From contig HG799473.1 in NCBI GenBank assembly GCA_000531095.1, positions 62,001-126,000 of the forward strand: 64,000 nt of DNA. The letters are read 5' to 3'. The translations under genes and the position numbers were made by a program. Below, piece by piece: positions 12,298 to 31,611 of this stretch. Positions within the stretch are counted from its first letter, which is position 1; each line of letters opens with the position of its first letter. The DNA is from Gemmata massiliana (GTDB lineage Bacteria; Planctomycetota; Planctomycetia; Gemmatales; Gemmataceae). The notes below the pieces were generated by a model, which saw nothing but the letters and a program-made list of their open reading frames with translations, was not told the DNA's origin and made no database searches.

Positions 12298-12379
12298 TCG
12301 TTGTCGAGGATGTTGATCGCGGAGGACGGAATTCCAGAAGCAGGTCAAAAAAACCGATAGTGAGCGAGGAGGGATGCCG

Positions 12380-14642: not shown

Positions 14643-14676
14643 GAGCCTCATCGCCGGGCGCAGTGCCGCAAGCTCA

Positions 14677-15120
14677 TCACTTTTTCTTGCCGCGTGGCGA
14701 ACGGCGTACAGACAATTTCAGGGGAGCGGGTCGCTCTCGTCGCCATACGAACGGGATGTCGTCGCCCTGGTGGTAACGCATGGTGCCGGTGATCGACTCG
14801 TCGGCAGCGTTGTACGCCACGTCAGCGGCGGCACCGCACACTTCGTCGCCATCGTCGCTGCCGACGAAAGTGAAGAAGATCGCCGCCGCGTGGGTCCACA
14901 CCTCGTCCACCCGCCCGTCGATAATGCCCTGCTGCGCGCCAAACTGGAACGTGGCCGAGAACCGCTCGAACTCCGTGTGGGTGATCAAAACGTGCGGGTC
15001 GGGCGTCAGGTCGAGGTAGGCATCCGTCATCGACGGCAGTTCGGCCACAGCCCACTTGCCGGACAGGTCGAGCGGCGGTCGTGACGGGATGCGGGGCAAT
15101 TCTATTTCTCCAGCGATCAC
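14677..15120 (-). CDS. Small protein at the end of the type I-G cas operon
   Basis: The protein has about 147 residues from a GTG. It shows a lipocalin-like pattern: 'LSGKWAVAEL' near residue 20, 'GIIDGRVDEVW', and 'ITGTMRYHQGDDIPFVWRRE' near the C-terminus. The tail is strongly basic (RRSPRGKKK). It starts 28 bp after the stop of the cas gene upstream on the same strand, so it probably belongs to that transcript. I do not know its function. It could be an accessory subunit, a regulator, or unrelated cargo. Confidence 0.55.
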   Translation of the reverse strand: MIAGEIELPRIPSRPPLDLSGKWAVAELPSMTDAYLDLTPDPHVLITHTEFERFSATFQFGAQQGIIDGRVDEVWTHAAAIFFTFVGSDDGDEVCGAAADVAYNAADESITGTMRYHQGDDIPFVWRRERPAPLKLSVRRSPRGKKK

Positions 15121-15147
15121 CTCGGCACGGGACGAGTCGAGCAGCCC

Positions 15148-16317: not shown

Positions 16318-19300
16318 GTTCTGGCCCCCACCGGCTCGGCATCGACCGAGTCGTCGCCAAAGACGCCGGCGTCTTCATCGGCGCTGGCCTGTTGGTCGGC
16401 GAGACGCAAGATCGCCTCAAGGTATGCAAGCCCCCACCACCCGTAGCGCCGGGTCAGGCTCCAGAATCGTTCCGCGATCCGAGAATCGAGGCGGTGCGGC
16501 GGACACTCCAACCGCACGGCTCCCATTAACGCCACGCCCTTCACAGTCACGTCGGGCGGATCACCGTCGAGGACGAGCGGTGCGAAAGGACGGGCGTAAC
16601 CGTGATGTGCCGCGATCAGGTGTAGGATCAAATCCCGATGCTTGTGGGCTGCCGCAGCCAGTTGAAAGCGACCAGCGATCTGAACGGAGAGCATTTCGTG
16701 CCGAAACCCTTCTGGCAAGCCGGCCCGCTCCCGAGCCTCTCTTCGCTGCTGCGGCGTTTGCGGCATCCCATCGGACTTGGCGAGCAGAGCGGAATCCGTC
16801 CCTGTGAGGAGCCAAGTATCCGTGCGGTCGGTGCGCCGCAACATGGCTTGGAATCGTTCATCGGCCTTACCGAGGTCATGAAGATCAGCGGCTTCGCCAT
16901 ACGGCCCGGACAACTCGTCTAACGGGAGCGCGGTGGCGGTACGGATGACCTCCTCCCGCACATGCCGGGTGTGGTCGTCAAGGCCAATCGGCTTCCGACA
17001 GGTCGTCAGAGATCGGTCGTCCTCGCCTTCATCGACCACCGGCAAGTACCAATCCGTAGTCGATCCCAGCCGACGCCGTGTCGATAGCACCACTCCGCGA
17101 TCATCGGGGTAGTTTTCGCGGACCAGACCCAAGCGGATGTTCGCCAGATTGCGGCAAGATCTCGACTGCTCGGGACCGAACCCGTCCGCCGCGTCGGAGA
17201 GAAGTTGACGCAATTCGGCCTGCGTCAGCGGCCCCTCGGGATCGCCGATCCGCCCCAGCAACTCGGTGATCGCGTCGGAGTCCGGCAACTGCTCCCGTAG
17301 GCTCGGGTGCAACCGGAGGACCGCCCGATCCCGCGCCGAACGAAACGCCGTCTCAGCCACGTCGATGGGGGCGGACGGGGGAACGTGGCCGAGGTCGTCC
17401 CAGCCACCGGCGAGCATCGGGAGGACGAGCGTATCGCCGAGCCGAAGTTCGTCGGGGGAGTCGATGACCTTACTTTCGCCCTCCCGAGAGCCTCTCCAGA
17501 GGACGCCGGCCCGCGACTGCACCAACCGCTTCTCGGCTTGGCTCCTGCCCTTTCCTGCTTGGCCTGCCGCTGGCGGCGCGTCATTGGTCCCCAGTAGGTC
17601 GCCTTGATCGGAACTTCCCGATTCGTCGGTCAGCCATCGCCGGACTCGGGAAATGGGGACGCTCATGCACTCGGCTGACGTGGGTGACAACAGCCCGACG
17701 ATGTCGCACCAGTCCGTTCGCTTTAGATGGTCATCTTGGACCAAATCGGCCCGCCAGCAGACCTGTACGTCCGGTTCTCCCGACTGCGGCCCATGGATGA
17801 ACAGGGCCACCTCGGGGTCCGGGGTCGGACGCGGACTCGTTTGGCACCAGAAATCGACGTAGGCCGGCAGCATTACTGGGGCATCCTGTGAGGCCGATGG
17901 TGCTGTCAATTTCCTGCGGTCATCCCCGCCGAGTGAATCGAAAAGCGGCTGAAAGGCGTCGATGCCAAAATCGACGGAACGAACTTCGATGACCGTCTGA
18001 GCAGAGTTCCGTCCTCTGCGGGAAGGCCGCACATCGGCACCCGCGTCGATACTTGTTACATCCGCACGTTCCGTGAGCCAGTTCCACGTCCTCGCTAGCG
18101 CGTTGCCGTAGATGGGATCGAGAGGCTTCGCAGCGTCCCACTGCGCGTCATCGTCCCACTTCAATTCCGTCCTCGCCTGCTCGCCGTCGATCAAAACCAT
18201 GCCGATAGCCACGATGTCACGTCCGCCGCGATTGAGCCGCCCGAACCGTTGCCGCAGCGCATCGAGCGACGCACATTCCGTCACCAGGGCGTCGAAATCG
18301 TAGTCCGCCCCCACCTCCAGGCACTGAGTCGCCACGACGAAACACTTCGCCGTCGTCACCTCTGGTCGTGCTGGGCCGACGAGCGTGCGCAACCTCTCGG
18401 CCTGCCGGTCCCGGTCGATGGGACGCATTGATCCGATGACGAGTTCGACCACGGCGTCGGGATGTTCGTCCCGCAGCCGTTCGTAGATCGCCTTAGCGGT
18501 AGCCACACGGTTGACGATTACACCCACGGCGACCGGGTGCCGCGTCGCAAGAGATCCAGTCTCGGTCGCCGCCGCTTCCACGATGTCGGACACCCCCAAC
18601 AACTTCGCCCGCTTCGACGCCTTGAGGCGGTTGTCCAGACCCGGATTCTTGCGATCCTCGACCGGATCGATGCGGATGATGTCCGTGTCTCCCACGCCCT
18701 CCGGTGGGGTCGCAGTCATCGGCACCAAGATCATCGCCGGGACGCCGAGCGGCTGCGCGGCCCACCGCTCGGGGTCGAGGTATCGCTTGACGGAGTGCAG
18801 CGTCTGGAGGAAGGGACGACTGATGTGGGCCTCGTCCAGCAGGACGAGGCTGTCGTAGGCGATCAGTGCTGCCTGGACGGGGGCGGCATTCGGCGAGACG
18901 CCGTAGCCCCGGAACAAGAGCCGCGACCCTAGTTGGTCGATGGTGGTGCAGACGATCATCGGTTGGGTAGCGGATCGCGCCCACCGATTGTCGCGGTAGA
19001 TTCCGCCCCGGAGTTCCAGAACGTCCAGCGGCGGGCCATTGGGGTCTGCACGGCTGGAGAGACTTCGGAGGGCGTGGGCGACCCGCCGCAAGGTCGGCTT
19101 CATATCGTCCGAATCGCGTTCCGCCCGCCAAATCTCGTCCGCGATCTTCTTTCCACGGCGGGCGGCTTCATCCACGATCACCCGGCGGTTCACGCAGAAG
19201 AAGATGCGGCGGGCGGCGGTGCGGTCCGCCTTCGCCCATGACGCCTGACACGCCAGCGCGAAGACGGCGATGTCCAGACAGGCCGTCTTTCCGCTGCCCG

Positions 19301-19439
19301 TGGGAAGGTCGATGGCTCCCGGCCAGTTCGTGGCGACCACTTGCCGAGCCAATCGAGACTGCCAGTCGTAGGGGTGGCGGTCACGACCGTGCAGTTCGCG
19401 GAAGTAGTTCTCGAAGTCGGCGAGCGAGAGCGGGTTCAT
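16314..19439 (-). CDS. cas3: Type I-G CRISPR helicase-nuclease Cas3
   Basis: The protein has about 1041 residues with the helicase first and the HD nuclease last, as in type I-G Cas3. The helicase shows Walker A 'DLPTGSGKT' (Lys51), a DEAH box (residues 202-205), motif III 'TATPP' and, in domain 2, 'TKCFVVATQCLEVGADYDFDALVTECASLDALRQRFGRLNRGG'. The C-terminal HD domain shows 'EAADLHDLGKADERF' and 'LIAAHHGYARPF'. Known function is unwinding and degradation of DNA recruited by Cascade. It overlaps neighbours by ATGA on both sides, so the operon is tightly coupled. All key motifs look intact. Confidence 0.9.
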   Translation of the reverse strand: MNPLSLADFENYFRELHGRDRHPYDWQSRLARQVVATNWPGAIDLPTGSGKTACLDIAVFALACQASWAKADRTAARRIFFCVNRRVIVDEAARRGKKIADEIWRAERDSDDMKPTLRRVAHALRSLSSRADPNGPPLDVLELRGGIYRDNRWARSATQPMIVCTTIDQLGSRLLFRGYGVSPNAAPVQAALIAYDSLVLLDEAHISRPFLQTLHSVKRYLDPERWAAQPLGVPAMILVPMTATPPEGVGDTDIIRIDPVEDRKNPGLDNRLKASKRAKLLGVSDIVEAAATETGSLATRHPVAVGVIVNRVATAKAIYERLRDEHPDAVVELVIGSMRPIDRDRQAERLRTLVGPARPEVTTAKCFVVATQCLEVGADYDFDALVTECASLDALRQRFGRLNRGGRDIVAIGMVLIDGEQARTELKWDDDAQWDAAKPLDPIYGNALARTWNWLTERADVTSIDAGADVRPSRRGRNSAQTVIEVRSVDFGIDAFQPLFDSLGGDDRRKLTAPSASQDAPVMLPAYVDFWCQTSPRPTPDPEVALFIHGPQSGEPDVQVCWRADLVQDDHLKRTDWCDIVGLLSPTSAECMSVPISRVRRWLTDESGSSDQGDLLGTNDAPPAAGQAGKGRSQAEKRLVQSRAGVLWRGSREGESKVIDSPDELRLGDTLVLPMLAGGWDDLGHVPPSAPIDVAETAFRSARDRAVLRLHPSLREQLPDSDAITELLGRIGDPEGPLTQAELRQLLSDAADGFGPEQSRSCRNLANIRLGLVRENYPDDRGVVLSTRRRLGSTTDWYLPVVDEGEDDRSLTTCRKPIGLDDHTRHVREEVIRTATALPLDELSGPYGEAADLHDLGKADERFQAMLRRTDRTDTWLLTGTDSALLAKSDGMPQTPQQRREARERAGLPEGFRHEMLSVQIAGRFQLAAAAHKHRDLILHLIAAHHGYARPFAPLVLDGDPPDVTVKGVALMGAVRLECPPHRLDSRIAERFWSLTRRYGWWGLAYLEAILRLADQQASADEDAGVFGDDSVDAEPVGART

Positions 19440-21208
19440 GGGCTGTCACCTCCAAGGAGCGGCTTGCACAGCCCGTAACCCAGGAACCGCCCGGCACAGA
19501 GCAGGACCGGCCCAACCACCGGCTCGGCGAACCGGAGGAAGACGTGCAGTTGCGGGCGCACGCCGTTCGAACCCTTGGCTGGATAGGCCGGAAATCCGTC
19601 TCCCAGAGTTGCCGTTCCTTCAACACCCGCTTGTCCGCGAATCGGACGACGCTTTGCCGATGCCCGAGGACTCCCCCGGTGCCAACTCGTCGTGCCGAAC
19701 CGAATTTCCGCAGGGCCGGGCAGCCCGAGCCGCCCGCAGGCCGTTGCGATGATGTCGGCGACCTCGAACTCCCATGCGGCCCGTTCCTTCAGCGCGTCTG
19801 CCTTCGGGAACCGATCCAGTACGACGGGCGTCACCGTCGCCCAGGTGGTCGCCCCGTGAGGGTGAGCGGTCCAAGTCTTGGGCTTCAGACCGTGCCGCGT
19901 TTCGGACCAGTCGCGCTTGACGAGCGTCCACTCACCGAGAGGCCCGAGGGTCAACGTGACCGGCTTCGCACGCATTTCGGCATCCATCAGGAGCCGACCG
20001 AGGACGCGGCCCCGCTCCTGGCGAGGAACCGAGGCGGGGAACACTAAGGCGGCACCGAGTAAGTGACCATCGGCAAACTCGCCGCTGACGACAGGCAACG
20101 GGATGTAGGCCAGATGTTGCCGACCGTCTCGCAGCGGTTGGCGATCCTCGACATGGCCGCTGACCCACGGCGGCGGGGGTTGCACCGCGCTGTTGCTCAT
20201 GACCGCACCACGCAGAGCCTGCGTGACGGCGAGGGTCGAAGCCAGCGGCAGTCGCGGCCCGCCAACCTGGGTAAGGATCAAGAGGTCACTGTCGAAATCC
20301 GAATGCGCGATGGGAGAAGCGGGTGCCGCCTGCTGCCGTCGATAGCCCGTCCAGAGGCCCAGCTTGGGGCGGATCGGAGGGCGAGAATCGACCGACTCAA
20401 GTTGCCCCCGGCGCTCCTCGATCTGTCGGTCGATGTCTGCCTTCAGGTCAGCCGCACCTTTGCCGCGAATCGTCTTCTTCCTCGCGTCGAGCGACTCGAT
20501 TTCGGCGGTCAGTCGGGTGTGTTCGGTGCGACCCCGCCCGTTGAACTGGCGTTCGAGCAGGCCGAGCGTGCCGCCGGAAACGCGGCGGACGTGGAGATCG
20601 GCAAGGCCGTCAGCGGGAACCCAGACATCTGCCCCGTCCGGGGAGCAAAGCTCATCGGCGAGCCACACCCGCACCAACGACGAGGAGTGGCCGATCCGGG
20701 TGACTTTGCCGCACAGCCGCTGCAAGGCCGCAGAGTGCCGCACGACGGACTCTTCGCTGGCGCGCGGCCAGTGCATGAAGCAAGGCGTGTCGCCGACCCA
20801 AACGGTCGGGAACGTGCGGTCGCTTTTCTTCCGCGCTATCGACGGCGCGGATTGCAGCGTCCCTGACTTTTCCTCGGGGAAGGTGTCCTTGGCACGGTCG
20901 CCGTTCACCGGCACAAAGACCGTGACGACCTTCCGAAGACTCACTTCGTGTTCGGGAGGCAAAACGAGTTGAGGGTCGCGGCTGTGGCCGTCCCCAAGCG
21001 TCTCCAGCCATTGAAGCGAATCTCCTTCTTCCTCCCACTCCTTCCGATCCGGCGCGTCGTTCGATGGCTCCGTTTCAAACCACGCCGCCGCCATCGCCAT
21101 GAAGACGCGACCGGGGTGCGGGGGCCACTCAGCCCGTTGGCGACTGGCCGGGTCCGTGGCGACGCAGCACCCGGTCAGATATTCCCACCCGATGGTCAAG
21201 CCGGGCAT
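19436..21208 (-). CDS. csb2: Type I-G Csb2 (Cas5-Cas6-type subunit)
   Basis: The protein has about 590 residues. The N-terminus 'LTIGWEYLTGCCVATDP...AEWPPHPGRVFMAMAAAWFE' is typical of Csb2 (GSU0054 family), which in type I-G combines Cas5-like and crRNA-processing functions. The C-terminus contains 'QLHVFLRFAEPVVGPVLLCAGRFLGYGLCKPL', the glycine-rich RAMP segment. The ATG at 21208 forms a TGATG overlap with csb1; a GTG three bases earlier is the alternative. It would bind the 5' handle and may process crRNA. Because no convincing CRISPR array is present in the window, its RNA substrate must come from elsewhere. Confidence 0.85.
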   Translation of the reverse strand: MPGLTIGWEYLTGCCVATDPASRQRAEWPPHPGRVFMAMAAAWFETEPSNDAPDRKEWEEEGDSLQWLETLGDGHSRDPQLVLPPEHEVSLRKVVTVFVPVNGDRAKDTFPEEKSGTLQSAPSIARKKSDRTFPTVWVGDTPCFMHWPRASEESVVRHSAALQRLCGKVTRIGHSSSLVRVWLADELCSPDGADVWVPADGLADLHVRRVSGGTLGLLERQFNGRGRTEHTRLTAEIESLDARKKTIRGKGAADLKADIDRQIEERRGQLESVDSRPPIRPKLGLWTGYRRQQAAPASPIAHSDFDSDLLILTQVGGPRLPLASTLAVTQALRGAVMSNSAVQPPPPWVSGHVEDRQPLRDGRQHLAYIPLPVVSGEFADGHLLGAALVFPASVPRQERGRVLGRLLMDAEMRAKPVTLTLGPLGEWTLVKRDWSETRHGLKPKTWTAHPHGATTWATVTPVVLDRFPKADALKERAAWEFEVADIIATACGRLGLPGPAEIRFGTTSWHRGSPRASAKRRPIRGQAGVEGTATLGDGFPAYPAKGSNGVRPQLHVFLRFAEPVVGPVLLCAGRFLGYGLCKPLLGGDSP

Positions 21209-22524
21209 CACTCGCCTCCTTCGCCGCCCTGAGCGAGTGCGAGTTGCTGGCTCTTCACGACCAGCTTGACCAGATCGTTTGAAGGGATGAGCCGAAGGGG
21301 TTGCGTCCGCCAGGGCAGCCCGATTTTTTCGTCCGTGGCATCCGCGATGGCTGCCTTCAGCAACTGGATCGCGTCGTCAGCCTCCAATGTCAAATCTTTC
21401 TCGATCTGGCCCGGCTTGCCGAGCAACTCCCAGGAGAGTGGCGCAATCGGCCACAGGAGGCAGCGCGACCGCAGGTCCAACCCGGCTTCGGCGGCCAGCG
21501 ATGCTGCGCACAGGCCCAACGCGGCCAGGACGGTTCGGGCGGCGTCATCGACCTTCGGGTCGAGCTTGCCTCCGAGCGGGAACCGCAGCCGGCGGAGTGC
21601 GGGGAATGACAGGACGACGGTTTGCTCGGCGGAGGTGATGGTGAACCCGCCGTGAAACGGCTGGCCTTTCTTGTCCTTCAAATCCGGCTTGATGTTCCCG
21701 TGGTTGACCTCTGACGGCTTCCCCTCCTTGCCGACTTTTACGGGGACGCCCTTCTCTTGCTTTGCCTTGGTGGGATCGAGAGTCCAGGCCGCAGGTTGTG
21801 CATCGTCCGCCTGATAAACCGGGCCTGCTTCCAGTTGGATGCTCAGGGGGTCGATGCGGCTGCTGCTGCGGACACCGCTCACCCCGTCGATGCCGACGAT
21901 CTCGCTGACCATCGCCCGCTCGAATTTGACGCCCAGCCCGCCCTTCGGCCCCGTCGAGTCCCACATACCGAGCAAGAGGGCGGTCGGACACAGCTTGAAG
22001 AGGGCAGTCGCGTTCTGCGCGGACACTCGCCGCAACTCTTTTCCGAACTCCGACTCGTCTTTCTCGGCCTTGGTGCGGAACGGCTTGTTGTCCTCCTCGA
22101 CAACGCTGTCCCGAAGGATAGCGTCAACGATCCGGTGAGGTGCCTGGAGGGACGTGACCTTGCCCGCCGGCTCGACCAGACGGAGAGTCGCATCCTTGTC
22201 CGTGCCAGGGAAGAACGGGTCAAAATCGACTACGACCAGGGGCAGGCTGACGCCCGCCTTATCGAACCGCCCGCTGTCGATGGCCTGCTGCAGAGCTTCC
22301 TCAAGCCGGTTCGCCTGGGACTGGACCGAATCCAGCAGAACGCAGTCCACTGGCTGTTCGTACCCCGGCAGGCGTCGCTTCTCGGTCGCGTACACGGCCC
22401 CCGCATATGTCGGCGGGAAGACCTTTGTCCCTTCGCCCCCGGCAGGCTGGAGGGTGACTCGGGACCGGATGGCCGCGCCGCCACGAACGGCCTCCTGAAG
22501 TTTGGCCAAGGTCAACTTGCTCAC
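21208..22524 (-). CDS. csb1: Type I-G Csb1 (Cas7-type backbone subunit)
   Basis: The protein has about 438 residues from a GTG at 22524, chosen because an AGGAG Shine-Dalgarno lies 7-8 bases upstream and the family begins at 'SKLTLAKLQEAV'. Csb1 (GSU0053 family) is the Cas7-like backbone protein of type I-G complexes. Supporting segments are 'AIRSRVTLQPAGGEGTKVFPPTYAG', 'CVLLDSVQSQANRLEEAL', 'SPTALLLGMWDSTGPKGGLGVKFERAMVSEIVGI' (in spirit) and 'SFPALRRLRFP'. It is the first gene of the operon csb1-csb2-cas3-15148 gene. The 210-bp gap upstream holds a GACAAA...TTTGTC inverted repeat (22666-22671 and 22689-22694), a possible operator for the XRE protein encoded just upstream. Confidence 0.87.
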   Translation of the reverse strand: MSKLTLAKLQEAVRGGAAIRSRVTLQPAGGEGTKVFPPTYAGAVYATEKRRLPGYEQPVDCVLLDSVQSQANRLEEALQQAIDSGRFDKAGVSLPLVVVDFDPFFPGTDKDATLRLVEPAGKVTSLQAPHRIVDAILRDSVVEEDNKPFRTKAEKDESEFGKELRRVSAQNATALFKLCPTALLLGMWDSTGPKGGLGVKFERAMVSEIVGIDGVSGVRSSSRIDPLSIQLEAGPVYQADDAQPAAWTLDPTKAKQEKGVPVKVGKEGKPSEVNHGNIKPDLKDKKGQPFHGGFTITSAEQTVVLSFPALRRLRFPLGGKLDPKVDDAARTVLAALGLCAASLAAEAGLDLRSRCLLWPIAPLSWELLGKPGQIEKDLTLEADDAIQLLKAAIADATDEKIGLPWRTQPLRLIPSNDLVKLVVKSQQLALAQGGEGGE

Positions 22525-22733
22525 GGGGTCGCTCCTACACTCTGGGCCAGTGTTCGTTCGCAACGCCGGAACCGAGGACGGCTCTTCGAGGAAGATCGGG
22601 AAGGCATCCCGGTCGCTCAACGAATGACGAACAATTTGGGAGAGTGTAGCCGGTCCCACTGCGACGACAAAGTCAGTAGTGCAGTCAATTTGTCAGATCA
22701 GATGACGAATTCCAGGGCAGACCGAGTACGCCA

Positions 22734-23063
22734 TCACCCCGCTTTGACGACATCGCCGAGTTGGCACCGCAGAGCCTCGGCGAGCTTCCGCCGGGCCTGC
22801 TTGACCGCCTCGGGTGCGTCGTCATCCCCGGTGCAGTAGCACAGGACGTACACGTCGATGCCGTAGACCTCGGTCAGTCGCGCCATCAGCGAGGCGGACG
22901 GCGGTGTCACCCCCCGCTCAACGTTGCTCAGATGGACGGACGAGACGCCGAGGGCTTCGGCGGCGGCTCTCTGCGTCATCCCGACCGTTTCGCGGACGTA
23001 GCGGACAGTGCTGCCGAGTGCGGTCATCCGAGTGGCCCAAGATCTTGGGGCGGTCGATACCAA
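22734..23063 (-). CDS. XRE-family transcriptional regulator
   Basis: This is a small protein of 109 residues. A Cro/C1-type helix-turn-helix spans about residues 18-70: 'VRYVRETVGMTQRAAAEALGVSSVHLSNVERGVTPPSASLMARLTEVYGI'. The C-terminus is a short helical tail 'EAVKQARRKLAEALRCQL'. It lies upstream of, and in the same direction as, csb1, and diverges from the SUMF1-helicase operon, so it could control both. Position 23027 is an alternative start. A decayed copy of its 3' half occurs at 31454-31611. Confidence 0.85.
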   Translation of the reverse strand: MVSTAPRSWATRMTALGSTVRYVRETVGMTQRAAAEALGVSSVHLSNVERGVTPPSASLMARLTEVYGIDVYVLCYCTGDDDAPEAVKQARRKLAEALRCQLGDVVKAG

Positions 23064-23395: not shown

Positions 23396-25531
23396 ATGGC
23401 GATTCAACCCACATCTCCCGAGCCTCTCGTTGACCGCTTTGGCCGCTCGGTAGGCCGCTGGTGGCGTCGCGCCAAGTATCAGTGGCTGAATGTACGTCTC
23501 TTGACCGATGTGGGCATTGCCATCGTGCTTTTCGCTGCCGCATTCTTCTCTGCGAAGGCGCTACCGAAAGAGGCCAGTCCGCCCAACTCAGGTGTAGGCT
23601 TTGCCCTCGCCTTCTTTGCCTCGCTGCCGCCACTGTTAATGGTCGGCGGCTTCTGGTACGTCCGACGCTACCTCAAGGGCGAAGCGGCATACGAAGACTT
23701 GCGGGCCGCATCGCGGCCATCTCTTACAGGGTTCTTCGAGTGGTTTCTTCGATTCCCTTGCTCGGCAGTCGTGCTGTTTGCCCTGCTCACTGGGATCGCA
23801 CTGGCGGCGTGGGGATGCGGCGGTTGGGGGCCAGCCATTCAAACGAGCATGATGCAAGTGACCGCTCCCTTGCCGCCCGTGGCCACCGCGATCAATTCGG
23901 TGTTCGGGGTAGAAGCCACGCCCTGGCCGGGCTGGGTGGGCTTCGTGCTGTCCCTGGTCTACGCCGGGGTCGTGTTCGCTCTAGTCGCGGCGTGGTTCGA
24001 GCGAGGCAAGCAACGACAGAACTATGTGTCCAGCCTGTTTACCGAGGAGGACCGGAGTGGCTCTCCGTATGGGTTCCGGTATGGAAACTCGCCTGACGAC
24101 GTGCAGCCTGAACCGCACGAACGGGTTCTGCTGATGAAGGGGGACCGCATCGGACCCGCCAGCCTTCCCTATCTGCGAGTGGAACTTTCAGGGCCGGAAT
24201 GGACAACAGAACCAGTCATGGACGACCGTTGCCGAGGAGCGGTGGCGGTTCTCGAACGTGTGTTCGGAGTGAACGAGAAAAAAGAGTTTGATCCGAAACG
24301 CGGCGAAGCTGTCTGGCAGGCGGAGCCGTTGGCCAGTATCCACATCGCCGACTGGCTCCTGAGTCACCTGGGTCGTCTGGTCGAGCAGGACCGTTCGCTT
24401 CCCGACTCGGCGTTCGATCATCGACTCGGGGAGGTGGTCGGGGCGGTGGCTGCGGTGCTTGCCAGCGGACAGTCGCTGCCTCCCCGGCCCACGCCGACAT
24501 CCCGTGGCGCATACCACGACCCTGACAGGGCGGGAAAGCTCCGCGTCCAGCTCCGACATCTTTTTTCGCGTTCTCCGAAGCGTCCGGCCCTGCTGATTGC
24601 CGCTTGTGACGCAGCCGAGCGGCTGGGAACACCCGAAGACTTGCAGTTGCTTGATGAGCAAACCCGCCGTCTCGATGTGCAGGCTGGATTCACGGTCCCC
24701 CAAACCGACCGAATCCTGCAAACTCGTGACCGCGTATTGGCCAGAGATCCCCTGCGGTCGGCGCTGATGGCGAAGGTGCTTCGGCGGATCGAAGGGTTGG
24801 GGATGGAGCGGCTGCCGGTCCCAGAGGGGAAGTCGTTGCACTTCCGCCGGTCGTCGGACGGCGCAGTCATGGTCTTGGTCGTCGCCGGGTCGTTTTGTCG
24901 AGGAGACGATCATACCGAAGAAACTTCGCCGAGAAGGCGGGTGCATCTCGGTAGCTACCTGATCGACCTCGCCCCGGTATCGCAGGACTCGTTCAGACGG
25001 TGGGCTGAAGCACAGGGAAGCGTGCTGCGGGTCGAGCGCGGGTTCTTTCCCGTCCAGGGGCTGCCAGACGATGTTCCTCTGGATCGCGCGTATGCGAGCC
25101 ATGTGACGTGGTTTGCGGCGCAGGCGTATGCCCAGTGGGTGGTCGCTGGGGGGCATCTGGCGACAGAGGCCCAGTGGGAGAAGGCAGCGCGGGGGACCGA
25201 GGACGACCGCCGTTATCCCTCTGGAAATACCTGGGTAGACGAGCCGGCGTCTCCCTACGGCATTCGGTTGTGTCACTTGCTGGAGTGGACGCAGGACGCA
25301 TTCGACCGTCTGGCTTATCGTCGCAGCCCGGTCGTGTTCGATCCCCGAATGGAAAGCGCCGCCAGTGCGGGCGACGAGGCCATGCGAGTGATCCGTGGTC
25401 GCACTCCTGGCGGTTCTGTAGTGAGTTACAGCTTAGTCAGCCGCCTTGGGATGGAACCTGTCACAGGAGCCTTCACCGCACCCGTAGGGTTCCGTGTCGT
25501 CGTTGACCTTGAGCAGGAGCCGCAGAGATGA
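23396..25531 (+). CDS. Membrane protein with C-terminal SUMF1/FGE-like domain
   Basis: The protein has about 711 residues. Four hydrophobic segments (roughly residues 37-55, 70-90, 120-142 and 180-203) anchor the N-terminal third. A long cytoplasmic middle follows. From about residue 485 there is a formylglycine-generating-enzyme-like fold: 'MVLVVAGSFCRGDDHTEETSPRRRVHLGSYLIDLAPVSQDSFRRWAEA', 'VTWFAAQAYAQWVVAGGHLATEAQWEKAARG', and 'CHLLEWTQD...VIRGRTPGGS...VGFRVV'. Such domains in conflict systems are usually binding or sensor modules rather than sulfatase activators. The stop overlaps the next start as ATGA. The gene begins a three-gene operon with an SF1 helicase and a winged-helix protein. 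Confidence 0.75.
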   Translation: MAIQPTSPEPLVDRFGRSVGRWWRRAKYQWLNVRLLTDVGIAIVLFAAAFFSAKALPKEASPPNSGVGFALAFFASLPPLLMVGGFWYVRRYLKGEAAYEDLRAASRPSLTGFFEWFLRFPCSAVVLFALLTGIALAAWGCGGWGPAIQTSMMQVTAPLPPVATAINSVFGVEATPWPGWVGFVLSLVYAGVVFALVAAWFERGKQRQNYVSSLFTEEDRSGSPYGFRYGNSPDDVQPEPHERVLLMKGDRIGPASLPYLRVELSGPEWTTEPVMDDRCRGAVAVLERVFGVNEKKEFDPKRGEAVWQAEPLASIHIADWLLSHLGRLVEQDRSLPDSAFDHRLGEVVGAVAAVLASGQSLPPRPTPTSRGAYHDPDRAGKLRVQLRHLFSRSPKRPALLIAACDAAERLGTPEDLQLLDEQTRRLDVQAGFTVPQTDRILQTRDRVLARDPLRSALMAKVLRRIEGLGMERLPVPEGKSLHFRRSSDGAVMVLVVAGSFCRGDDHTEETSPRRRVHLGSYLIDLAPVSQDSFRRWAEAQGSVLRVERGFFPVQGLPDDVPLDRAYASHVTWFAAQAYAQWVVAGGHLATEAQWEKAARGTEDDRRYPSGNTWVDEPASPYGIRLCHLLEWTQDAFDRLAYRRSPVVFDPRMESAASAGDEAMRVIRGRTPGGSVVSYSLVSRLGMEPVTGAFTAPVGFRVVVDLEQEPQR

Positions 25532-28500
25532 ACGACACGCCAACGACGGGCCTGCGGGAACTGCCTCTGTCGCAGTACCTTCTGCGGGGAAGAAGGTCGA
25601 ACGCCGCCGCGCAGTACGAGGAACTGCGGCGGTTGCAAGAAGAACAAACGGCGTTGACGCCGATGTCTTGTGGCCCGTTTCGCCTCTTCATGTTCGAGGG
25701 GCAGGAAGCGATGTTGCGGTCGGTCGGGAAAGATCGTAAGGGCATAGTGACAATCCTCGGCCAAGGCATGGACGTGATGCGGGTCGAGCCGGCTGAGGAT
25801 GGGACCGGGGGAAAGGTGGTCGGTTTCCTCGACAAGGGACAACTGCGGGTAGTGATCGGACATGAGCCGGAACAGCCCGCGTTAGCGGACTGGCGGTTGC
25901 TAGGGGTCGAATCAGGCAAGCCGCAAGGAAACTCGTTGGCACGACTGACTGCGATATGGTCGGTGAGTAAAGGGCAGAGAAATGACCCCGTTGCGGGTGA
26001 TGCTGCCGCCGTGGCCAATCATTTCGAGGAGGTCATCCGACAGCATCAACGCTGGGTGAAGAGTTGGCAACCTCCAACCGTATCGGTCCCATTCCTGCTC
26101 TTTCACCTTGACCGGGAACTGCCGAAAAACGCAGCGATGGATCGTCTCTTTGACGGTTTGCGACGTGGCACGTTGGTGTTTGATTGCCGCCAAAGTGGGC
26201 AATCAAAGTTCGCAAGCGGACGACCCGCCAAGCTGGTACTCCACGCCCCAGACTTTCGTGCGATTCTCACCGCCTATCCACCACGGTTCTCGGACGCCGG
26301 TCCAAATGAGTGGTTGGTAGCGCATGTGGAGGACGCACCAGACGACCTTACCCCCATTGTGCAACTTGAGGTGAAGTGCCATGTATTTAGCCGGCGAGGT
26401 CGTGAGCAGTTTCAGAGCGTTTCGGATGCCGACTGTTGGTTGGCCGAGCTTGAGCGTTGGCATCAGCACTATGACCACTGGCGACAGCGGGACTGGCCGG
26501 TACAGCAAATTGCAGGCGGGTTTTTCAATCTGCGATTGCCCCCGCGCGTTCAGGCTGACCTCCAACAACAGCACATCACGCCAGAGAAACTCTGTGCGGC
26601 GATGAACCGTGGACTCGACCTTTACGAGGTAACCGGGCGAGAATCCGATGTCGTTGTTGCCGTGCCGGACGGGTTGGAATGCCGCGTTCGGCTGACGCCT
26701 TACAAGCCATCGATGGGCAACTCGGACTGGAAACTCATCGACCTCCGACAGGCCGAATCTGCCTTGCCAGGGTATGCCCGGATCGTTGCTCGGTGGGAAG
26801 AGGGGATTCTGGGCCAGACGCCAATGACAGGAGATGCCGCCGGGTTGGTGCGCGAACTTGGTGTTCTGCAAAGCCGACGCAAGGAAGTAGCTCAACAGAT
26901 CAGCATTGGTCTGGAGCGGTTGGCAGGCAATTCCCCTGAGTTGTCGGAACGGATCGGGTGCTGGCGCAGAGTCTGCGAGTTCGAGCGTGATCTGCTCGAA
27001 GTTGGGGTGACCCGCCTGGAGCGGGACGGCTACGACTTTTCGTTGATCCCCGAGGAACAAGAAACGGTCGAAGACTGGATCGACGGCCTTGAGAGCCTGA
27101 ATCAAGAGGGCGTTGACTGGGTTCGCTATCCGTTGGAACTGCGGATGGGTGAGGAACACGCCCGCCTCGTCATTCGTTCCATCGTCGTCGCTGAGGCCGA
27201 GGGGAGCGAACTTGTCCTGAAGATCGGTTGTGACAACCCCCGTGGCCGAGCGTTGGTAGAGAGCCTGTGTAACGGCGGTACGGGTGAGACTGACGAGCGA
27301 GAGCGTGTCAGGTTGTTCCTGCCGGACACGCAGTTGCGGCTGATCGACAACGCTTTGTCTCTCCTCGATCCGAGCCAGAAAACACGCACCGAAAAACGGG
27401 GAGTCGTAGGAGAAGACCTGACCCCAGACGACATCTCCCTGCGCACGCTCCAGAGAATCCTGGCGTCTGCTACCGAGCTTGAGCCGATCACCTCGATCTG
27501 GCCCTCTTTGCCAATGACGCCCCTTGCCCAACTGTCCCCGAAGCAGGAAGAAGCGGTGCGGGCGGCGGTCTTCGGCCCCGACATGACGTTGATCCAGGGG
27601 CCACCCGGCACGGGAAAAACGACCGTGATCCTCGAAATTCTCCGACAACTTTTCCGCATGCACGGGCGGGAAGCCGGGTTCAAGGTGCTGCTCGTCGCAC
27701 CAACGCATGTCGCGGTGGACAATGTGCTGGAACGCCTTGTTGCTCCCCGGCGTGGAAGCAACTTGGTGATGGAACTCGGTGTCGCTCCATACCGGGTCGG
27801 CTCCACTCGGAGGATTGCAGAGCATCTCCGGGGCTTCACGCCGGACTGCCTCAACACGAAGTATCGCGAAGACTTGGAACGGGAGGTGGCCGAGGCCGTC
27901 GGCGCGGCCCGACGAGACTGCAAGCGTGATCAACAGGTGTTGAGCGCACTAAGGGACGGCGCGGGGTACGATGCCGTGTCTTGGGCATCGGCCCTGGAAT
28001 CAGGCACGTTGCTGGAACCGGAACCGGGGGACTGGCCATCTTCGCTGGACGAGCAATGGCAGGCTGCGGTAGCCACCCAGGAAGGCCGCGTTCGGGCGTG
28101 GCGACACTGGCGTGCGCGGGGTTCGCGACCGGAAGAACGAGCGGGCCTGCTACAGCGGTGGCTCGATTTCCTCCGGCTCAACCCGCGTTTTTTCTCCGAA
28201 CTTCTGGTTGCCAACGCCAATCTTGTGTGTGCGACAACCATCGGTTGCGCGACGCACCGTGAGCTACGTTCCGTGGTGTACGACTACGTCATCGTGGACG
28301 AGGCCGGGAAGGAGGAAGCACGTCGTCTGCTGGTCCCTCTCATTCGCGGCGAGAGGTGGGTGCTGGTGGGCGACCACCAGCAACTCCCGCCCTACGCCGA
28401 CGACAGCTTGCAGGCCCGGCTACGGAGTGAGGGGTTGGACCCCCGGACGGTGACCCGCTCGCTGTTCGAGGAGTTGCAAGAGCCGTTCGAGCGGCGTGGC

Positions 28501-29235
28501 TGCTACGTCTTCCTCGACAGGCAGGGACGGATGCACCCGGACATTTCGGCATTCGTGTCCGATCAGTTCTACGGTGGTCGCCTGCACGACTTCCCCCACG
28601 CTGCGACACATACCATGCCGAGGCCGGCGTTTCTACCTGACACACCGACCTTGCTTGTTCTTGACACCCGGCAACTTCCCGACCGAAAGGAAACACGCCG
28701 GGGAACGGGCTACGTCAACCTCCTTGAGCAAGAACTAACCGTCTTCCTGCTCCGGGCCTTCGCCTGCCTCCCCCCGTTTAGAGACGGCCTTGCCCTCGGC
28801 CAGGCATCTGCCATCCCCACGATCGGCGTGATCGCACCGTACCGCCTTCAGGTCGAAGACATCGAACGCCGGGTGCGGCGAGATCCCCTTTTGAAGGTTC
28901 TGCTACACGCAGGCGTCCTTCATGTCGGAACTGTTGACAGCTTCCAAGGACAGGAGAGGGATCTGATCCTCTTCACCTGTACCCGAAGCAACCCCGGAGG
29001 GCGATTGGGCTTTGTTGATAACCGACAGAGACTGAACGTGGCGCTCTCACGGGCGCGATGCCGACTGATCGTGCTTGCGGACGGGCAAGCCGTGGATCTG
29101 GCTCGACTTCGCTCGGACGTGTCCGGTGTCGAGGCCGAGACGCGCGACCATCTCCATGCTTTGTTCATGTTCGCGGGTAGCCGTGGCGGTGTGCAGGTAG
29201 TGCCGGGGGACTGGAGAACTCGTTGGCGCGGGTGA
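25528..29235 (+). CDS. SF1 DNA/RNA helicase, COG1112/UPF1-like
   Basis: The protein has about 1235 residues. The C-terminal half is a complete superfamily 1 helicase: 'LSPKQEEAVRAAV' (Q-motif-like), Walker A GPPGTGKT ending near residue 698, 'VLLVAPTHVAVDNVLERL' (Ia), 'DYVIVDEAGKEEARRLL' (II, DEAG), 'WVLVGDHQQLPPY' (III), 'RMHPDISAFVSDQFY' (IV region), and 'VGTVDSFQGQERDLILFTC...RLNVALSRAR' (V/VI). Residues 1-640 are an extended N-terminal region without a recognised enzyme. COG1112 helicases are the core of Mokosh antiphage systems, where they work with a phospholipase D nuclease; no PLD HxK motif is seen here. Gene overlaps on one side and a 3-bp gap on the other suggest a functional unit. 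Confidence 0.85.
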   Translation: MNDTPTTGLRELPLSQYLLRGRRSNAAAQYEELRRLQEEQTALTPMSCGPFRLFMFEGQEAMLRSVGKDRKGIVTILGQGMDVMRVEPAEDGTGGKVVGFLDKGQLRVVIGHEPEQPALADWRLLGVESGKPQGNSLARLTAIWSVSKGQRNDPVAGDAAAVANHFEEVIRQHQRWVKSWQPPTVSVPFLLFHLDRELPKNAAMDRLFDGLRRGTLVFDCRQSGQSKFASGRPAKLVLHAPDFRAILTAYPPRFSDAGPNEWLVAHVEDAPDDLTPIVQLEVKCHVFSRRGREQFQSVSDADCWLAELERWHQHYDHWRQRDWPVQQIAGGFFNLRLPPRVQADLQQQHITPEKLCAAMNRGLDLYEVTGRESDVVVAVPDGLECRVRLTPYKPSMGNSDWKLIDLRQAESALPGYARIVARWEEGILGQTPMTGDAAGLVRELGVLQSRRKEVAQQISIGLERLAGNSPELSERIGCWRRVCEFERDLLEVGVTRLERDGYDFSLIPEEQETVEDWIDGLESLNQEGVDWVRYPLELRMGEEHARLVIRSIVVAEAEGSELVLKIGCDNPRGRALVESLCNGGTGETDERERVRLFLPDTQLRLIDNALSLLDPSQKTRTEKRGVVGEDLTPDDISLRTLQRILASATELEPITSIWPSLPMTPLAQLSPKQEEAVRAAVFGPDMTLIQGPPGTGKTTVILEILRQLFRMHGREAGFKVLLVAPTHVAVDNVLERLVAPRRGSNLVMELGVAPYRVGSTRRIAEHLRGFTPDCLNTKYREDLEREVAEAVGAARRDCKRDQQVLSALRDGAGYDAVSWASALESGTLLEPEPGDWPSSLDEQWQAAVATQEGRVRAWRHWRARGSRPEERAGLLQRWLDFLRLNPRFFSELLVANANLVCATTIGCATHRELRSVVYDYVIVDEAGKEEARRLLVPLIRGERWVLVGDHQQLPPYADDSLQARLRSEGLDPRTVTRSLFEELQEPFERRGCYVFLDRQGRMHPDISAFVSDQFYGGRLHDFPHAATHTMPRPAFLPDTPTLLVLDTRQLPDRKETRRGTGYVNLLEQELTVFLLRAFACLPPFRDGLALGQASAIPTIGVIAPYRLQVEDIERRVRRDPLLKVLLHAGVLHVGTVDSFQGQERDLILFTCTRSNPGGRLGFVDNRQRLNVALSRARCRLIVLADGQAVDLARLRSDVSGVEAETRDHLHALFMFAGSRGGVQVVPGDWRTRWRG

Positions 29236-29238
29236 AGC

Positions 29239-30312
29239 ATGCGACGAGAACGCTGGAAAATCGTGGAGCGACTGCTCGAACAGGTCGAGGGGACGACGGG
29301 CCGATTGGTAATGGCCGTCGCCCCTGACCCGTTGGACGTTGTTCTCTACGAAACCCCGGTTCTCGGCAGGAGCCAGTCCCCACAAAATCCTCTTCGAGGG
29401 TTTGTCCAAGAAACCGTGTTGCTTCTCGAACAACCAACCGCCGCCGAAATCGCGGCATTGCTCCACCTCCCCTCCACAGTGGTCGAACTCGTTCTGGGCA
29501 ACCTCCAGCAAGTGGGTGGGGCCGTCAGCGACACCGCTGGCCGATGGTCAGTACCGGATGAAGCGCCAAGGTTCGGAACGGGCGGGAGCGACCCGCCGAT
29601 CTGGCGTCGGACTCGCCGGCTCCTTTGTTACTGGCCGGAACCGCAAGTGCTGCTTCCGGTCCTCCCCAGGATGCGGCTGCGCGATCTGGTGGAGCTTGGC
29701 GTGCATAAACTTCAAGGAGAGTTCGCTGAGGGGTATAACCGGATCGCATCGTGGACCGCTGCCGAAGGCTTGTTGCGGGGACGATCCGAAGCCGTGCGTA
29801 TCCTACCCTTGGGTGTCACTTCGGTGTTGCCTCCAGGCAAATCTTCGGCCATGCCGGATGCGCCTGTGTCTGTGGAGGAGGTTCTGGTCAGCCAGTGCCG
29901 GCTGGACGTGATCGCACTGACGTGGGCGTCCTACCACTCGGGGATCTGGGAGGTTACTTCTCGCCTGTGGTCCCGTCCAACGCCGGCTTCAGATGCAGCG
30001 GGTGAACCGTTTGCTCCCGGTGAGCCGATGCTCGGCTTGTCACTGCCGGAACGGTTACTCGGCGGCTCGCCGCTTGACGACCTCGGGAACCTGTTTGATC
30101 CCAGGCCGGATGTATGGCGGAATCTGCTGGATGACCAAGACGGAGTCGCATGGCTCCGTCGCGATCTCGAAGGCGACTTCCCTGCCGTAATCGTGGCAGA
30201 GCAGGCCGACGCCGAGAAACGGCGGTGGCAAGGCGTATCCTCACGGATTGCCCAAGAAGCCCGACTGCTCTGCTACCTGACTCCACCGCCTGCCGGAAAG
30301 GTTGAGAGGTAG
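29239..30312 (+). CDS. Unrecognised winged-helix-like protein, helicase operon
   Basis: The protein has about 357 residues and starts three bases after the helicase stop. Residues 45-95 ('ETVLLLEQPTAAEIAALLHLPSTVVELVLGNLQQVGGAV') look like a winged helix. The rest is soluble, with a proline-rich C-terminus and no catalytic motif I recognise. The last codons (PPAGKVER) and the stop lie inside the first copy of a 37-bp direct repeat, so the C-terminus may have been altered by a duplication. It is inferred to be the regulatory or adaptor subunit of the SUMF1-helicase system. Confidence 0.6.
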   Translation: MRRERWKIVERLLEQVEGTTGRLVMAVAPDPLDVVLYETPVLGRSQSPQNPLRGFVQETVLLLEQPTAAEIAALLHLPSTVVELVLGNLQQVGGAVSDTAGRWSVPDEAPRFGTGGSDPPIWRRTRRLLCYWPEPQVLLPVLPRMRLRDLVELGVHKLQGEFAEGYNRIASWTAAEGLLRGRSEAVRILPLGVTSVLPPGKSSAMPDAPVSVEEVLVSQCRLDVIALTWASYHSGIWEVTSRLWSRPTPASDAAGEPFAPGEPMLGLSLPERLLGGSPLDDLGNLFDPRPDVWRNLLDDQDGVAWLRRDLEGDFPAVIVAEQADAEKRRWQGVSSRIAQEARLLCYLTPPPAGKVER

Positions 30313-30399
30313 TAGCCACAATCACGGCGTCAGTCGAACTAGCGACTGAGTACGGCGAACCGCTGCCGGAAAGGTTGAGAGGTAGTAGCCACAATCACG
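30290..30399. repeat. Two 37-bp direct repeats separated by 36 bp
   Basis: Positions 30290-30326 and 30363-30399 are identical 37-base repeats with a 36-base spacer, the dimensions of one CRISPR repeat-spacer-repeat unit. The first copy overlaps the 3' end of the preceding gene including its stop codon. The spacer contains a perfect CAGTCG-N6-CGACTG hairpin. Overlap with a coding end and the hairpin favour a local duplication or a regulatory element. A degenerate mini-array is the alternative. Confidence 0.85.
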
Positions 30400-30458: not shown

Positions 30459-31430
30459 ATGCGGCTGAACATCAATGCTACGGGTATGAACGCTGTTCCG
30501 TTCCGAGTGGGAATATCCGAGGAAGCCGAGACAGAGCGACTTGTCATTGTCGTGTTCTTGAGCGGGGTGGCGTACAGCCCATCACAACTCGACACGATTC
30601 TGACCAGTTTGTCCAGTAAGACTGGCTTTGAGTGGCTGAAGCCAACGGGAAAACTGTGGGACATCGACGCGGATAAGTTGACGGGCATTCACGAACCTTT
30701 GAGGGCGATCCCCTGGTTCAAAGGCCGTCTTGTCAGCAGCTTCGATACCCAATTCGGAACGGCTCGGGGGTCGATGGGGAACTTCGATCAGTCAGGACGC
30801 GGATTGGCGATGGTGGGCCATCATCCATTTACCGCTCTTGCCTTCAGCCTGGATAAAGAGGTCGCCTCGGACAGCAACTGCCTTTTCTACTCATGGATGT
30901 CTGATCGAGAAAGCTACAGCAACCGAGGCTTCATCCAAGACTGTCTGGAGAAAGCAGTCAAGCAGATCGGCAAGGACGTGTCGATTGGCATTACCCCGTC
31001 ACTCGACAGGGACACGAAGGGCGAGACTGGATCACCCGACATCGCGGCCACGATCTTCAGAAAGATCGCAAGAGCGAGGGCATTTGTGGCTGACATCACA
31101 CTGATGGACCCGCCAATAGGAGGCTGGCGGAAGTTATTGACGCAGGCAGTCGGCCTCGGCCCCTTCAGGCTTTCGCCGAACCCCAACGTCCTCGTTGAAC
31201 TCGGATTCGCCGCAGGGCAAATGAGTTGGGAGCGATGCCTTCTAGTGTTTAACAGCGCCTTCGGAAGCATTGAGCAGTTGCCGTTCGATCTCCGTGGCAG
31301 GCGTATCGTGACGTACCACGTCGGGAAGAAGGACGACCGGCAAGCAGCCAGAGAATCATTCATCCCGTTGTTGAAGTCGCACCTTGTTGAAGCATTGGAC
31401 CTCAAGAGCGTGTCGGCACGGCAAGGATAG
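30459..31430 (+). CDS. TIR-like nucleotide-hydrolase-type effector protein
   Basis: The protein has about 323 residues. Residues 140-300 match the TIR-like family found in defence loci: 'CLFYSWMSDRESYSNRGFIQDCLEKAV', 'LDRDTKGETGSPDIAATIFRKIARARAFVADITLM', 'PNPNVLVELGFAAGQMSWERCLLVFN', and 'LPFDLRGRRIVTYHV'. Glu247 in the VELG segment is in the place of the catalytic Glu of NAD-cleaving TIR domains. Residues 1-135 form a separate N-terminal domain of unknown fold, possibly the sensor. No cGAS-like cyclase or other second-messenger synthase accompanies it, unless the distant nucleotidyltransferase at 13755 serves. It may act alone by NAD depletion. Confidence 0.65.
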   Translation: MRLNINATGMNAVPFRVGISEEAETERLVIVVFLSGVAYSPSQLDTILTSLSSKTGFEWLKPTGKLWDIDADKLTGIHEPLRAIPWFKGRLVSSFDTQFGTARGSMGNFDQSGRGLAMVGHHPFTALAFSLDKEVASDSNCLFYSWMSDRESYSNRGFIQDCLEKAVKQIGKDVSIGITPSLDRDTKGETGSPDIAATIFRKIARARAFVADITLMDPPIGGWRKLLTQAVGLGPFRLSPNPNVLVELGFAAGQMSWERCLLVFNSAFGSIEQLPFDLRGRRIVTYHVGKKDDRQAARESFIPLLKSHLVEALDLKSVSARQG

Positions 31431-31453: not shown

Positions 31454-31611
31454 TCATCCTGCTCTGACGACATCATCGAGTTGCTGTTGAAGAGCCTCGG
31501 CCAGCTTCCGCCGGGCCTGCTTGACCGCCACGGATGCATCATCGTCATCGTCACCGTTGCAGTATCAGAGAACGTACACGTCCACCCCGTAGATCTCTGT
31601 GAGCCTCGCCA
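31454..31611 (-). pseudogene. Decayed 3' copy of the XRE regulator gene
   Basis: Read on the minus strand, this stretch encodes 'ARLTEIYGVDVYVL', an in-frame TGA, 'YCNGDDDDDASVAVKQARRKLAEALQQQLDDVVRAG' and a stop. It parallels the C-terminal half of the intact XRE protein at 22734-23063 almost residue for residue; the TGA replaces a TGC Cys codon. The helix-turn-helix part is missing. With the intact copy it brackets the SUMF1-helicase-TIR block, which suggests a past duplication or recombination at this module's edges. Confidence 0.85.

What the first reader, a model, noticed from the sequence alone, without database searches (positions are those of the whole stretch)
23396..30312. Membrane SUMF1-like protein + COG1112 SF1 helicase + winged-helix protein: possible new helicase defence system
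Three genes are coupled (ATGA overlap; 3-bp gap). COG1112 helicases define Mokosh systems, but here the PLD nuclease and kinase are missing and replaced by a four-helix membrane sensor with an FGE-like domain and by an unrecognised protein.
Basis: partly seen in the sequence, partly recalled or inferred. Interest (0 to 1): 0.75.

Follow-up and report, generated by a model that had tools for sequence, protein, structure and literature searches.

The report
Nuclease-less Mokosh-like defence gene trio
Three linked bacterial genes appear to be a stripped-down relative of the Mokosh anti-virus system, in which the usual nucleic-acid-cutting enzyme is missing and a membrane protein, found nowhere else in our searches, travels in its place.

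Summary
The three genes are real, open in the window and conserved as a unit. P1 (711 aa) has four membrane helices and a pseudo-FGE domain without the FGE cysteine pair. P2 (1235 aa) is a COG1112/UPF1-type helicase with intact motifs. P3 has 357 aa. The same three genes in the same order occur in 4 of 102 genomes of the order; a fifth has a frameshifted P2, an open P3 and no P1. P1's N-terminal part was found only in those four. Flanking genes differ each time.

But P3 is recognisable. Its N-terminal winged helix resembles the one preceding PLD in Mokosh MkoB, a link resting mainly on two Gemmatales helicase partners. The helicase tree groups the trio with one of these, a locus with helicase, winged helix and PLD as separate genes.

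Best reading: a PLD-less, kinase-less Mokosh derivative with P1 as probable membrane effector. New lead: helicase residues ~181-330 exist in two divergent versions distributed against the rest of the protein, as a specificity module would be. Defence function is inferred.

The parts
23396..25531 (+). P1, 711 aa: four-TM membrane protein with a middle region and a C-terminal pseudo-FGE domain
   Evidence: N-terminal part found in 4 of 102 order genomes, all with P2 and P3
23498..23992 (+). four transmembrane helices of P1 (residues 35-199), predicted N-in/C-in
   Evidence: hydropathy; loop charges
24866..25528 (+). FGE/C-type-lectin-like domain of P1 (residues 491-711), lacking the FGE cysteine pair
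   Evidence: Pfam; alignment with FGE homologues of G000 and G025
25528..29235 (+). P2, 1235 aa: COG1112/UPF1-type SF1 helicase, MkoA-like over residues 639-1185
26068..26517 (+). two-version variable module of P2 (residues 181-330)
   Evidence: no room for it in the broken G499 copy
27532..29082 (+). helicase core of P2 (residues 669-1185): GPPGTGKT, DEAG, GDHQQLPP, VDSFQGQE and NVALSRA present
29239..30312 (+). P3, 357 aa: MkoB-N-like winged-helix partner without PLD
29290..29580 (+). winged-helix region of P3 aligned with MkoB-type partners (about residues 18-114)
   Evidence: profile-profile comparison

Best explanation
The trio is a PLD-less, kinase-less offshoot of Mokosh-type defence. 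P2 is a UPF1-like helicase that loads on and translocates along an invader nucleic acid, RNA or single-stranded DNA. Its exchangeable module at residues ~181-330 helps set what is recognised. P3 is the winged-helix adaptor that in MkoB is fused to the PLD nuclease and here has no nuclease. P1, the only other protein of the unit, sits in the inner membrane with its pseudo-FGE (lectin-fold) domain in the cytoplasm, and is most likely the output: when P2/P3 engage invader nucleic acid, P1 is recruited or gated and damages or depolarises the membrane, stopping growth of the infected cell. Shown: the conserved unit, helicase motifs present, FGE cysteine pair absent, no PLD or kinase found, and the two-version module. 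Supported by profiles and trees: kinship of P3 and P2 with split-MkoB loci. Inferred: anti-phage function, nucleic-acid sensing, P1 topology, adaptor role of P3 and effector role of P1.
For: Unit: P3 profile in 5 of 95 family genomes, P2 profile at E<=1e-100 in the same 5 of 102 order genomes, P1 N-terminal profile in 4 of 102, all among those 5. P3: of 636 ORFs around 12 other Gemmatales COG1112 loci that I picked from the list, its profile hits two (E 1.7e-5, 8.3e-5), each directly downstream of a helicase. One (G465) matches PADLOC MkoB positions 10-102 at 6.8e-12, and the next gene there is a PLD protein matching MkoB 312-424. Profile-profile of P3 against 18 helicase partners gives probability 88-93%, P 4e-7 to 3e-6; best of 200 column shuffles scores 21 against 46. 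Helicase tree: trio plus G465 100/99; with G442C5 and Pontibrevibacter 98/96. No HxKx4[DE] in 5 of 5 P3s. FGE cysteine pair absent in 3 of 3 P1s. Module: window versus G442 24% at 181-330 but 78% in the core; window versus G482 48% and 71%. Setting: Argonaute with REase partner, dGTPase-like gene and type I-G cas genes within 15 kb; type I R-M beside the G025 copy.
Against: P3 against six canonical MkoBs alone is not significant (probability 7%, P 0.005). Without the two Gemmatales partners probability falls to 42%, P 2.7e-4, and in the single-profile search without them a RuvB-like ORF and another window ORF score better than P3. The nearest helicases in the tree are long branches, flagged by the program. 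AlphaFold2 models of P3 and P1 are unusable (mean pLDDT 30 and 36). Nothing shows that P1 is toxic or that any member acts on phage. The ORFs read around the G482 copy include no obvious defence gene (by eye, no family search). Defence-island enrichment was not tested. The genome searches score only a capped number of first-look candidates, so absences are not proof.
Confidence: 0.5

Rival explanations
1. Same defence system, but P1 is the sensor or membrane anchor and P2/P3 do the damage. The lectin-fold domain binds an invader protein or glycan, as proposed for FGS domains in other bacterial conflict systems, and the helicase then unwinds or blocks phage nucleic acid.
For: Published passages propose FGS/FGE domains as invader-binding parts of conflict systems, also noted in planctomycetes (PMC8195603, PMC7159879; passages only). 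The P1 FGE domain keeps much of its sequence but not the cysteine pair. Its block 641-680 is less conserved (42-58%) than the rest of the domain, as a binding surface might be.
Against: Most of the FGE domain is well conserved (55-82% in 40-residue blocks over 481-600), and the sharply two-version part of the system lies in the helicase. P2 and P3 carry no recognised nuclease.
Confidence: 0.25
2. Not a defence system: a sporadic membrane-linked RNA or DNA maintenance operon, for example UPF1-like RNA handling at the membrane.
For: UPF1-like SF1 helicases have many cellular roles (recalled); around one copy (G482) no obvious defence gene was seen (by eye).
Against: Patchy presence (5 of 102 in the order), a different neighbourhood in each of the four full copies, recognised defence genes beside two of them, and kinship with Mokosh parts.
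Confidence: 0.15
3. The winged helix of P3 is only generically similar to MkoB's and the trio is an independent helicase system.
For: P3 against six canonical MkoBs is not significant; a RuvB-like and another window ORF score as well or better in single-profile searches, depending on the profile.
Against: Position directly after the helicase, collinear alignment including the stretch before the winged helix, and the helicase tree point the same way.
Confidence: 0.2

Closest known systems
Mokosh type I (MkoA kinase-helicase + MkoB PLD)
   Same: COG1112 helicase matching MkoA over 639-1185 (E 2e-103), followed directly by a partner with a MkoB-like N-terminal winged helix
   Different: No kinase and no PLD nuclease found; extra membrane protein P1; a 640-residue helicase N-terminus outside the MkoA match
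Split-MkoB loci: G465 (L026) and Pontibrevibacter plasmid (L073)
   Same: Helicase followed by a PLD-less partner in the same order; closest helicases in the trees
   Different: They keep a PLD protein as a separate downstream gene; the P1 profile found nothing at L026 and was not run on L073
Azospirillum lipoferum 4B AZO_p1 locus (L040)
   Same: Helicase, PLD-less winged-helix partner and a protein with C-terminal hydrophobic stretches (read by eye)
   Different: Has two protein kinases; its third protein has no Pfam match at E<=1e-4, hence no recognised FGE domain
FGS/FGE-domain conflict systems (ternary, STAND, DGR-linked)
   Same: FGE-type lectin-fold domain at the C-terminus of a multi-domain protein (PMC7159879, PMC8195603, passages)
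   Different: No STAND, MoxR or vWA domain above Pfam cut-off in the trio; no strongly hypervariable FGE segment seen

Membership tests
Mokosh (PMC11672841, passage read) | COG1112-family RNA helicase | tested here: met
   PADLOC MkoA E 2e-103; AAA_11/AAA_12; motifs present. RNA specificity not tested
Mokosh (PMC11672841, passage read) | PLD-family nuclease, separate gene (type I) or fused C-terminally (type II) | tested here: not met
   No PLD in P1-P3 in Pfam at E<=1; no HxKx4[DE] in 5 of 5 P3s; no tblastn match in window, L007, L014, L015, two of three PLD queries finding their controls
Mokosh type I | Serine/threonine kinase domain | tested here: not met
   No kinase in P2 at E<=1; no tblastn match in the four loci, both kinase queries finding controls
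Mokosh MkoB N-terminal part (read from the PADLOC profile match) | Winged-helix domain in the gene directly after the helicase | tested here: inconclusive
   Strong against 18 partners (P 4e-7 to 3e-6), weak against six canonical MkoBs alone (P 0.005)
Formylglycine-generating enzyme (FGE/SUMF1) | Two active-site cysteines near the C-terminus (role recalled; pair seen in two aligned homologues) | tested here: not met
   Absent in 3 of 3 P1 sequences; present in FGE homologues of G000 and G025
DGR-diversified FGE/C-type-lectin sensors | Hypervariable C-terminal repeat with reverse transcriptase and template repeat | tested here: inconclusive
   Only a moderate dip (42-58%) at P1 641-680 among three sequences; reverse transcriptase and template repeat were not searched for
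Anti-phage defence system | Protects against phage | not testable with these tools
   Only indirect: patchy distribution, different neighbourhoods, defence neighbours at two of four full copies

The most novel reading that the evidence does not exclude
The MkoB winged helix is a general adaptor that ties COG1112 helicases to interchangeable outputs: fused PLD, separate PLD, perhaps a two-TM protein, or here a four-TM pseudo-FGE protein. The trio would be a helicase-triggered membrane effector system whose helicase swaps a recognition module at residues 181-330 much as restriction specificity subunits do.
Probability: 0.35. Interest if true: 0.75.

Novelty: new variant of a known kind. Interest (0 to 1): 0.58.

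Why it matters
Mokosh is defined by a helicase plus a PLD nuclease, and one 2026 review table still lists its mechanism as unknown (PMC12926258, passage). A natural version that lacks the nuclease but has the helicase and a winged-helix partner separates sensing from output, and says which part to test for each. The two-version module in the helicase names a short region where target recognition could be mapped directly. If P1 proves to be the effector, COG1112 helicases join the defence sensors that can be wired to membrane killing.

Tried and rejected
Genuine Mokosh type I or II: rejected because PLD and kinase were sought and not found.

Active FGE enzyme: rejected, cysteine pair absent in 3 of 3.

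DGR-type diversified sensor: not supported but not excluded; only a moderate dip at P1 641-680, and no search for a reverse transcriptase was made.

CRISPR-like array at 30290-30399: two exact 37-nt copies 36 nt apart looked like a mini-array, but a 32-nt core of the repeat, up to 3 mismatches, occurs nowhere else in the genome; the first copy overlaps the end of P3, so a local duplication is likelier.

Gene 30459-31430 as a fourth member: no match in L007, L014 or L015.

Pairing FGE with COG1112 genome-wide: family searches done, but FGE genes are so common in the order (102 of 102 genomes) that the match list was cut off and no proximity test was made.

Structure: AlphaFold2 of P3 (single sequence) and P1 (two sequences) gave mean pLDDT 30 and 36; no fold search was run.

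Relatives in viral contigs: none confirmed with P2 or P3. Plasmids: no match for P3 (E<=0.1) or the P1 N-terminus (E<=0.01). The phage and E. coli collections were not searched. PDB: P2 found UPF1-type helicases, P1 found FGE enzymes, P3 nothing better than E 0.6. P3 profile hits outside the order at E 0.004-0.01 (3 of 392 genomes) were taken as noise. The first genome-contig scan found nothing; the second found one locus, L008. In one search the G465 PLD query found none of its control loci, not even the Pontibrevibacter PLD, so only the other two PLD queries count.

Rows dropped: of 17 plasmid loci opened (of 305 records), three (Spirosoma, Halalkalicoccus, Polaromonas CJ2) had no gene directly after the helicase on its strand and were left out. 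The partner set of 18 has 14 plasmid partners, two found by the MkoB profile (G218, G189) and two found by the P3 profile (G465, G442C5). The truncated Sphingomonas helicase and the partial helicases next to the G218 and G189 MkoBs were left out of the trees; the 14- and 16-row trees also leave out the nine other Gemmatales helicases, G442C5, Caballeronia and one Streptomyces. G499's helicase was left out of alignment A6 because it is frameshifted, and the G442 row there begins at about residue 97. G442 P1 was left out of A7.

Full report
WHAT IS THERE. Three genes run head to tail at 23396-30312: P1 (711 aa), P2 (1235 aa) and P3 (357 aa), with a 4-nt overlap and a 3-bp gap. P1 has an FGE-sulfatase domain, P2 an AAA_11/AAA_12 SF1 helicase core, and P3 no family above threshold. 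P2 matches PADLOC MkoA at E 2e-103, but only over residues 639-1185. The five helicase motifs looked for are present. Its best matches among solved chains are SMUBP-2, NAM7/UPF1, DNA2 and SEN1.

CONSERVATION. The helicase N-terminus was found in 2 of 59 genomes of the relatives search, the window's own genome included, and in 1 of 392 phylum genomes, again the own one. A profile of P3 found 5 of 95 family genomes, a profile of P2 at E<=1e-100 the same 5 of 102 order genomes, and a profile of the first 480 residues of P1 4 of 102, all within those five. Outside the order no P1 was found (1 of 343 phylum genomes, the own) and no credible P3. These searches score a capped number of first-look candidates per genome (as few as 3 to 5 in the phylum runs), so absences are not proof. 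One locus is named: Gemmatales bacterium KatS3mg105, contig BPJP01000001.1 (L008), whose contig length, position and tested letters equal those of G442. Order and overlaps are kept in four copies. The fifth, G499, has a helicase split over several frames, an open P3 and no P1 match on a 9.2-kb contig; it may be decaying or badly assembled. The G442 copy has interrupted P1 and P2 frames in a metagenome assembly.

SURROUNDINGS. In the window the trio follows a long-type Argonaute gene with its helical-REase partner, a dGTPase-like gene and type I-G cas genes, and is followed by a RuvB-like gene and an integrase. In G025 it lies beside a type I restriction-modification locus. In G442 it lies between genes with SNF2/Helicase_C and NOV_C domains and phage portal and terminase genes. 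Around the G482 copy I saw no obvious defence gene among the ORFs listed, by eye and without a family search. The neighbourhood differs each time, which fits a mobile cassette. No statistical test of enrichment was made.

P1. Hydropathy shows four membrane helices in the window and G025 proteins; G482 has the same four and a weaker fifth stretch. Positive charges are concentrated in the N-terminal stretch and between helices 2 and 3, which puts the N-terminus and, with four helices, the FGE domain in the cytoplasm (positive-inside rule recalled). FGE homologues from G000 and G025 show a cysteine pair near the C-terminus, whose catalytic role is recalled; P1 lacks it in 3 of 3 sequences. So P1 should not make formylglycine. 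The FGE domain is well conserved over residues 481-600 (55-82% in 40-residue blocks), less so at 641-680 (42-58%).

P3. Searching 636 ORFs around 12 other long COG1112 helicase loci of the order, which I picked, the P3 profile hit two, each directly downstream of a helicase: G465 (E 1.7e-5) and a second locus of G442 (E 8.3e-5). The G465 protein matches PADLOC MkoB at profile positions 10-102 (E 6.8e-12), and the next gene there is a PLD protein matching MkoB 312-424. MkoB thus appears to be winged helix plus PLD, and at G465 it is split in two. I then read the partner gene after COG1112 helicases in 18 loci (selection given under Tried and rejected). The strict PLD motif HxKx4[DE] is present in 8 of 18 and absent in 10 of 18, and absent in 5 of 5 P3s. 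Profile-profile comparison of P3 with the 18 partners gives probability 88-93% and P between 4e-7 and 3e-6, collinear from about residue 17 to 114-140; the best of 200 column shuffles scored 21 against 46 for the real alignment. Limits: against the six canonical MkoBs alone P is 0.005; without the two Gemmatales partners P is 2.7e-4, and in the single-profile search without them a RuvB-like ORF and another window ORF beat P3. The link to MkoB therefore rests on intermediates. Some PLD-less partners are themselves weak matches to a canonical MkoB profile in a set of 23 sequences (Sphingomonas 5e-7, Azospirillum 1e-6, but Rhizobium 0.15 and Caballeronia 2.3).

HELICASE TREE. In a 28-row tree the four trio helicases group with G465, G442C5 and Pontibrevibacter at 98/96. 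In a 14-row tree the trio plus G465 stands at 100/99; in a 16-row tree with Azospirillum and Pontibrevibacter the trio, G465 and Pontibrevibacter hold at 99/97, and Azospirillum joins at 86/89. The program flagged long branches in every tree, G465 among them, so details are unsure. Two genes, helicase and winged-helix partner, thus point to the same nearest relatives: loci where the partner has no PLD and, in G465 and Pontibrevibacter, the PLD is a separate gene. The simplest history is a split Mokosh that lost the PLD gene and gained P1.

A VARIABLE MODULE. Along P2 the four usable sequences are 69-78% alike in the core (641-1235). At residues 181-330 window/G482 keep 48% and G025/G442 53%, but every cross pair falls to 20-25%. 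Sites supporting window+G482 against G025+G442 are 21 of 24 informative sites in the module and 18 of 39 in the rest of residues 97-1235 (Fisher P 0.0012; four sequences only, sites not independent, and residues 331-640 lean the same way at 12 of 19). In the frameshifted G499 copy there is no room for this module between the flanking matches. Two versions of an internal segment spread against the rest of the protein is what exchange of a recognition module would give; unequal rates are the alternative.

MECHANISM. By analogy with Mokosh (helicase plus PLD nuclease, type I with a kinase; PMC11672841, passage read) I propose that P2 detects invader nucleic acid, that P3 couples it to the output, and that P1, the only remaining candidate, acts at the membrane. 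The Asgard paper states that Mokosh degrades viral transcripts (PMC11291487, passages), while a 2026 review table lists its mechanism as unknown (PMC12926258, passage). FGS/FGE domains have been proposed as invader-binding parts of conflict systems, and were noted in planctomycete systems (PMC8195603 and PMC7159879, passages; PMC10907252, passages). P1 as sensor therefore remains a serious rival. The original Mokosh paper (Millman 2022, recalled) was not read here.

NOVELTY. In the listings of six literature searches on FGE or formylglycine terms, conflict systems, Mokosh, MkoA/MkoB and COG1112 (open-access library only, longest lists cut at 12 to 20) and in the passages read I saw no description of such a trio. 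Of the BREX diversity paper only passages were read. I file it as a new variant: it probably works like a Mokosh relative, but it is not a member, because the PLD nuclease was tested and not met.

Noticed in passing
window 8753-22659: Defence cluster: long pAgo with Aga helical-REase partner, dGTPase-like HD protein, and type I-G cas genes (cas3g, a Cas8g/Cas3-extension match, csb2, csb1). A CRISPR array and cas1/cas2 were not looked for.
   Followed up: partly
window 30459-31430: 323-aa protein with weak C-terminal TIR/CAP12-effector similarity (PADLOC E 1.6e-6); no match in the three homologous trio loci checked.
   Followed up: partly
window 30290-30326 and 30363-30399: Exact 37-nt direct repeat with a 36-nt gap; the first copy overlaps the end of P3; a 32-nt core occurs only at these two places in the genome.
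   Followed up: yes
window 22734-22841 and 31454-31561: 108-nt direct repeat (78%); the first copy lies in an XRE-type regulator gene (22734-23063, minus strand). The pair flanks the trio plus gene 30459 and may mark an insertion or duplication.
   Followed up: no
L026:1015-8108 and L073:4353-10916: Helicase, PLD-less partner and PLD as three separate genes; L073 is annotated with a sigma-54 regulator next, and a similar-looking gene lies nearby in L026 (read by eye only): a possible distinct Mokosh subtype.
   Followed up: partly
L040:1096-9548: Azospirillum plasmid locus: two kinases, COG1112 helicase, PLD-less winged-helix partner, then a protein with C-terminal hydrophobic stretches (by eye): perhaps another membrane-output variant.
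   Followed up: partly
L075:1959-8373: Polaromonas plasmid: COG1112 helicase and a partner without the PLD motif sit inside a BREX locus between pglX and pglZ.
   Followed up: no
L038:6869-8638: Mycobacterium gallinarum MkoB-type protein is annotated as carrying an S1 RNA-binding domain in addition to its PLD motif.
   Followed up: no
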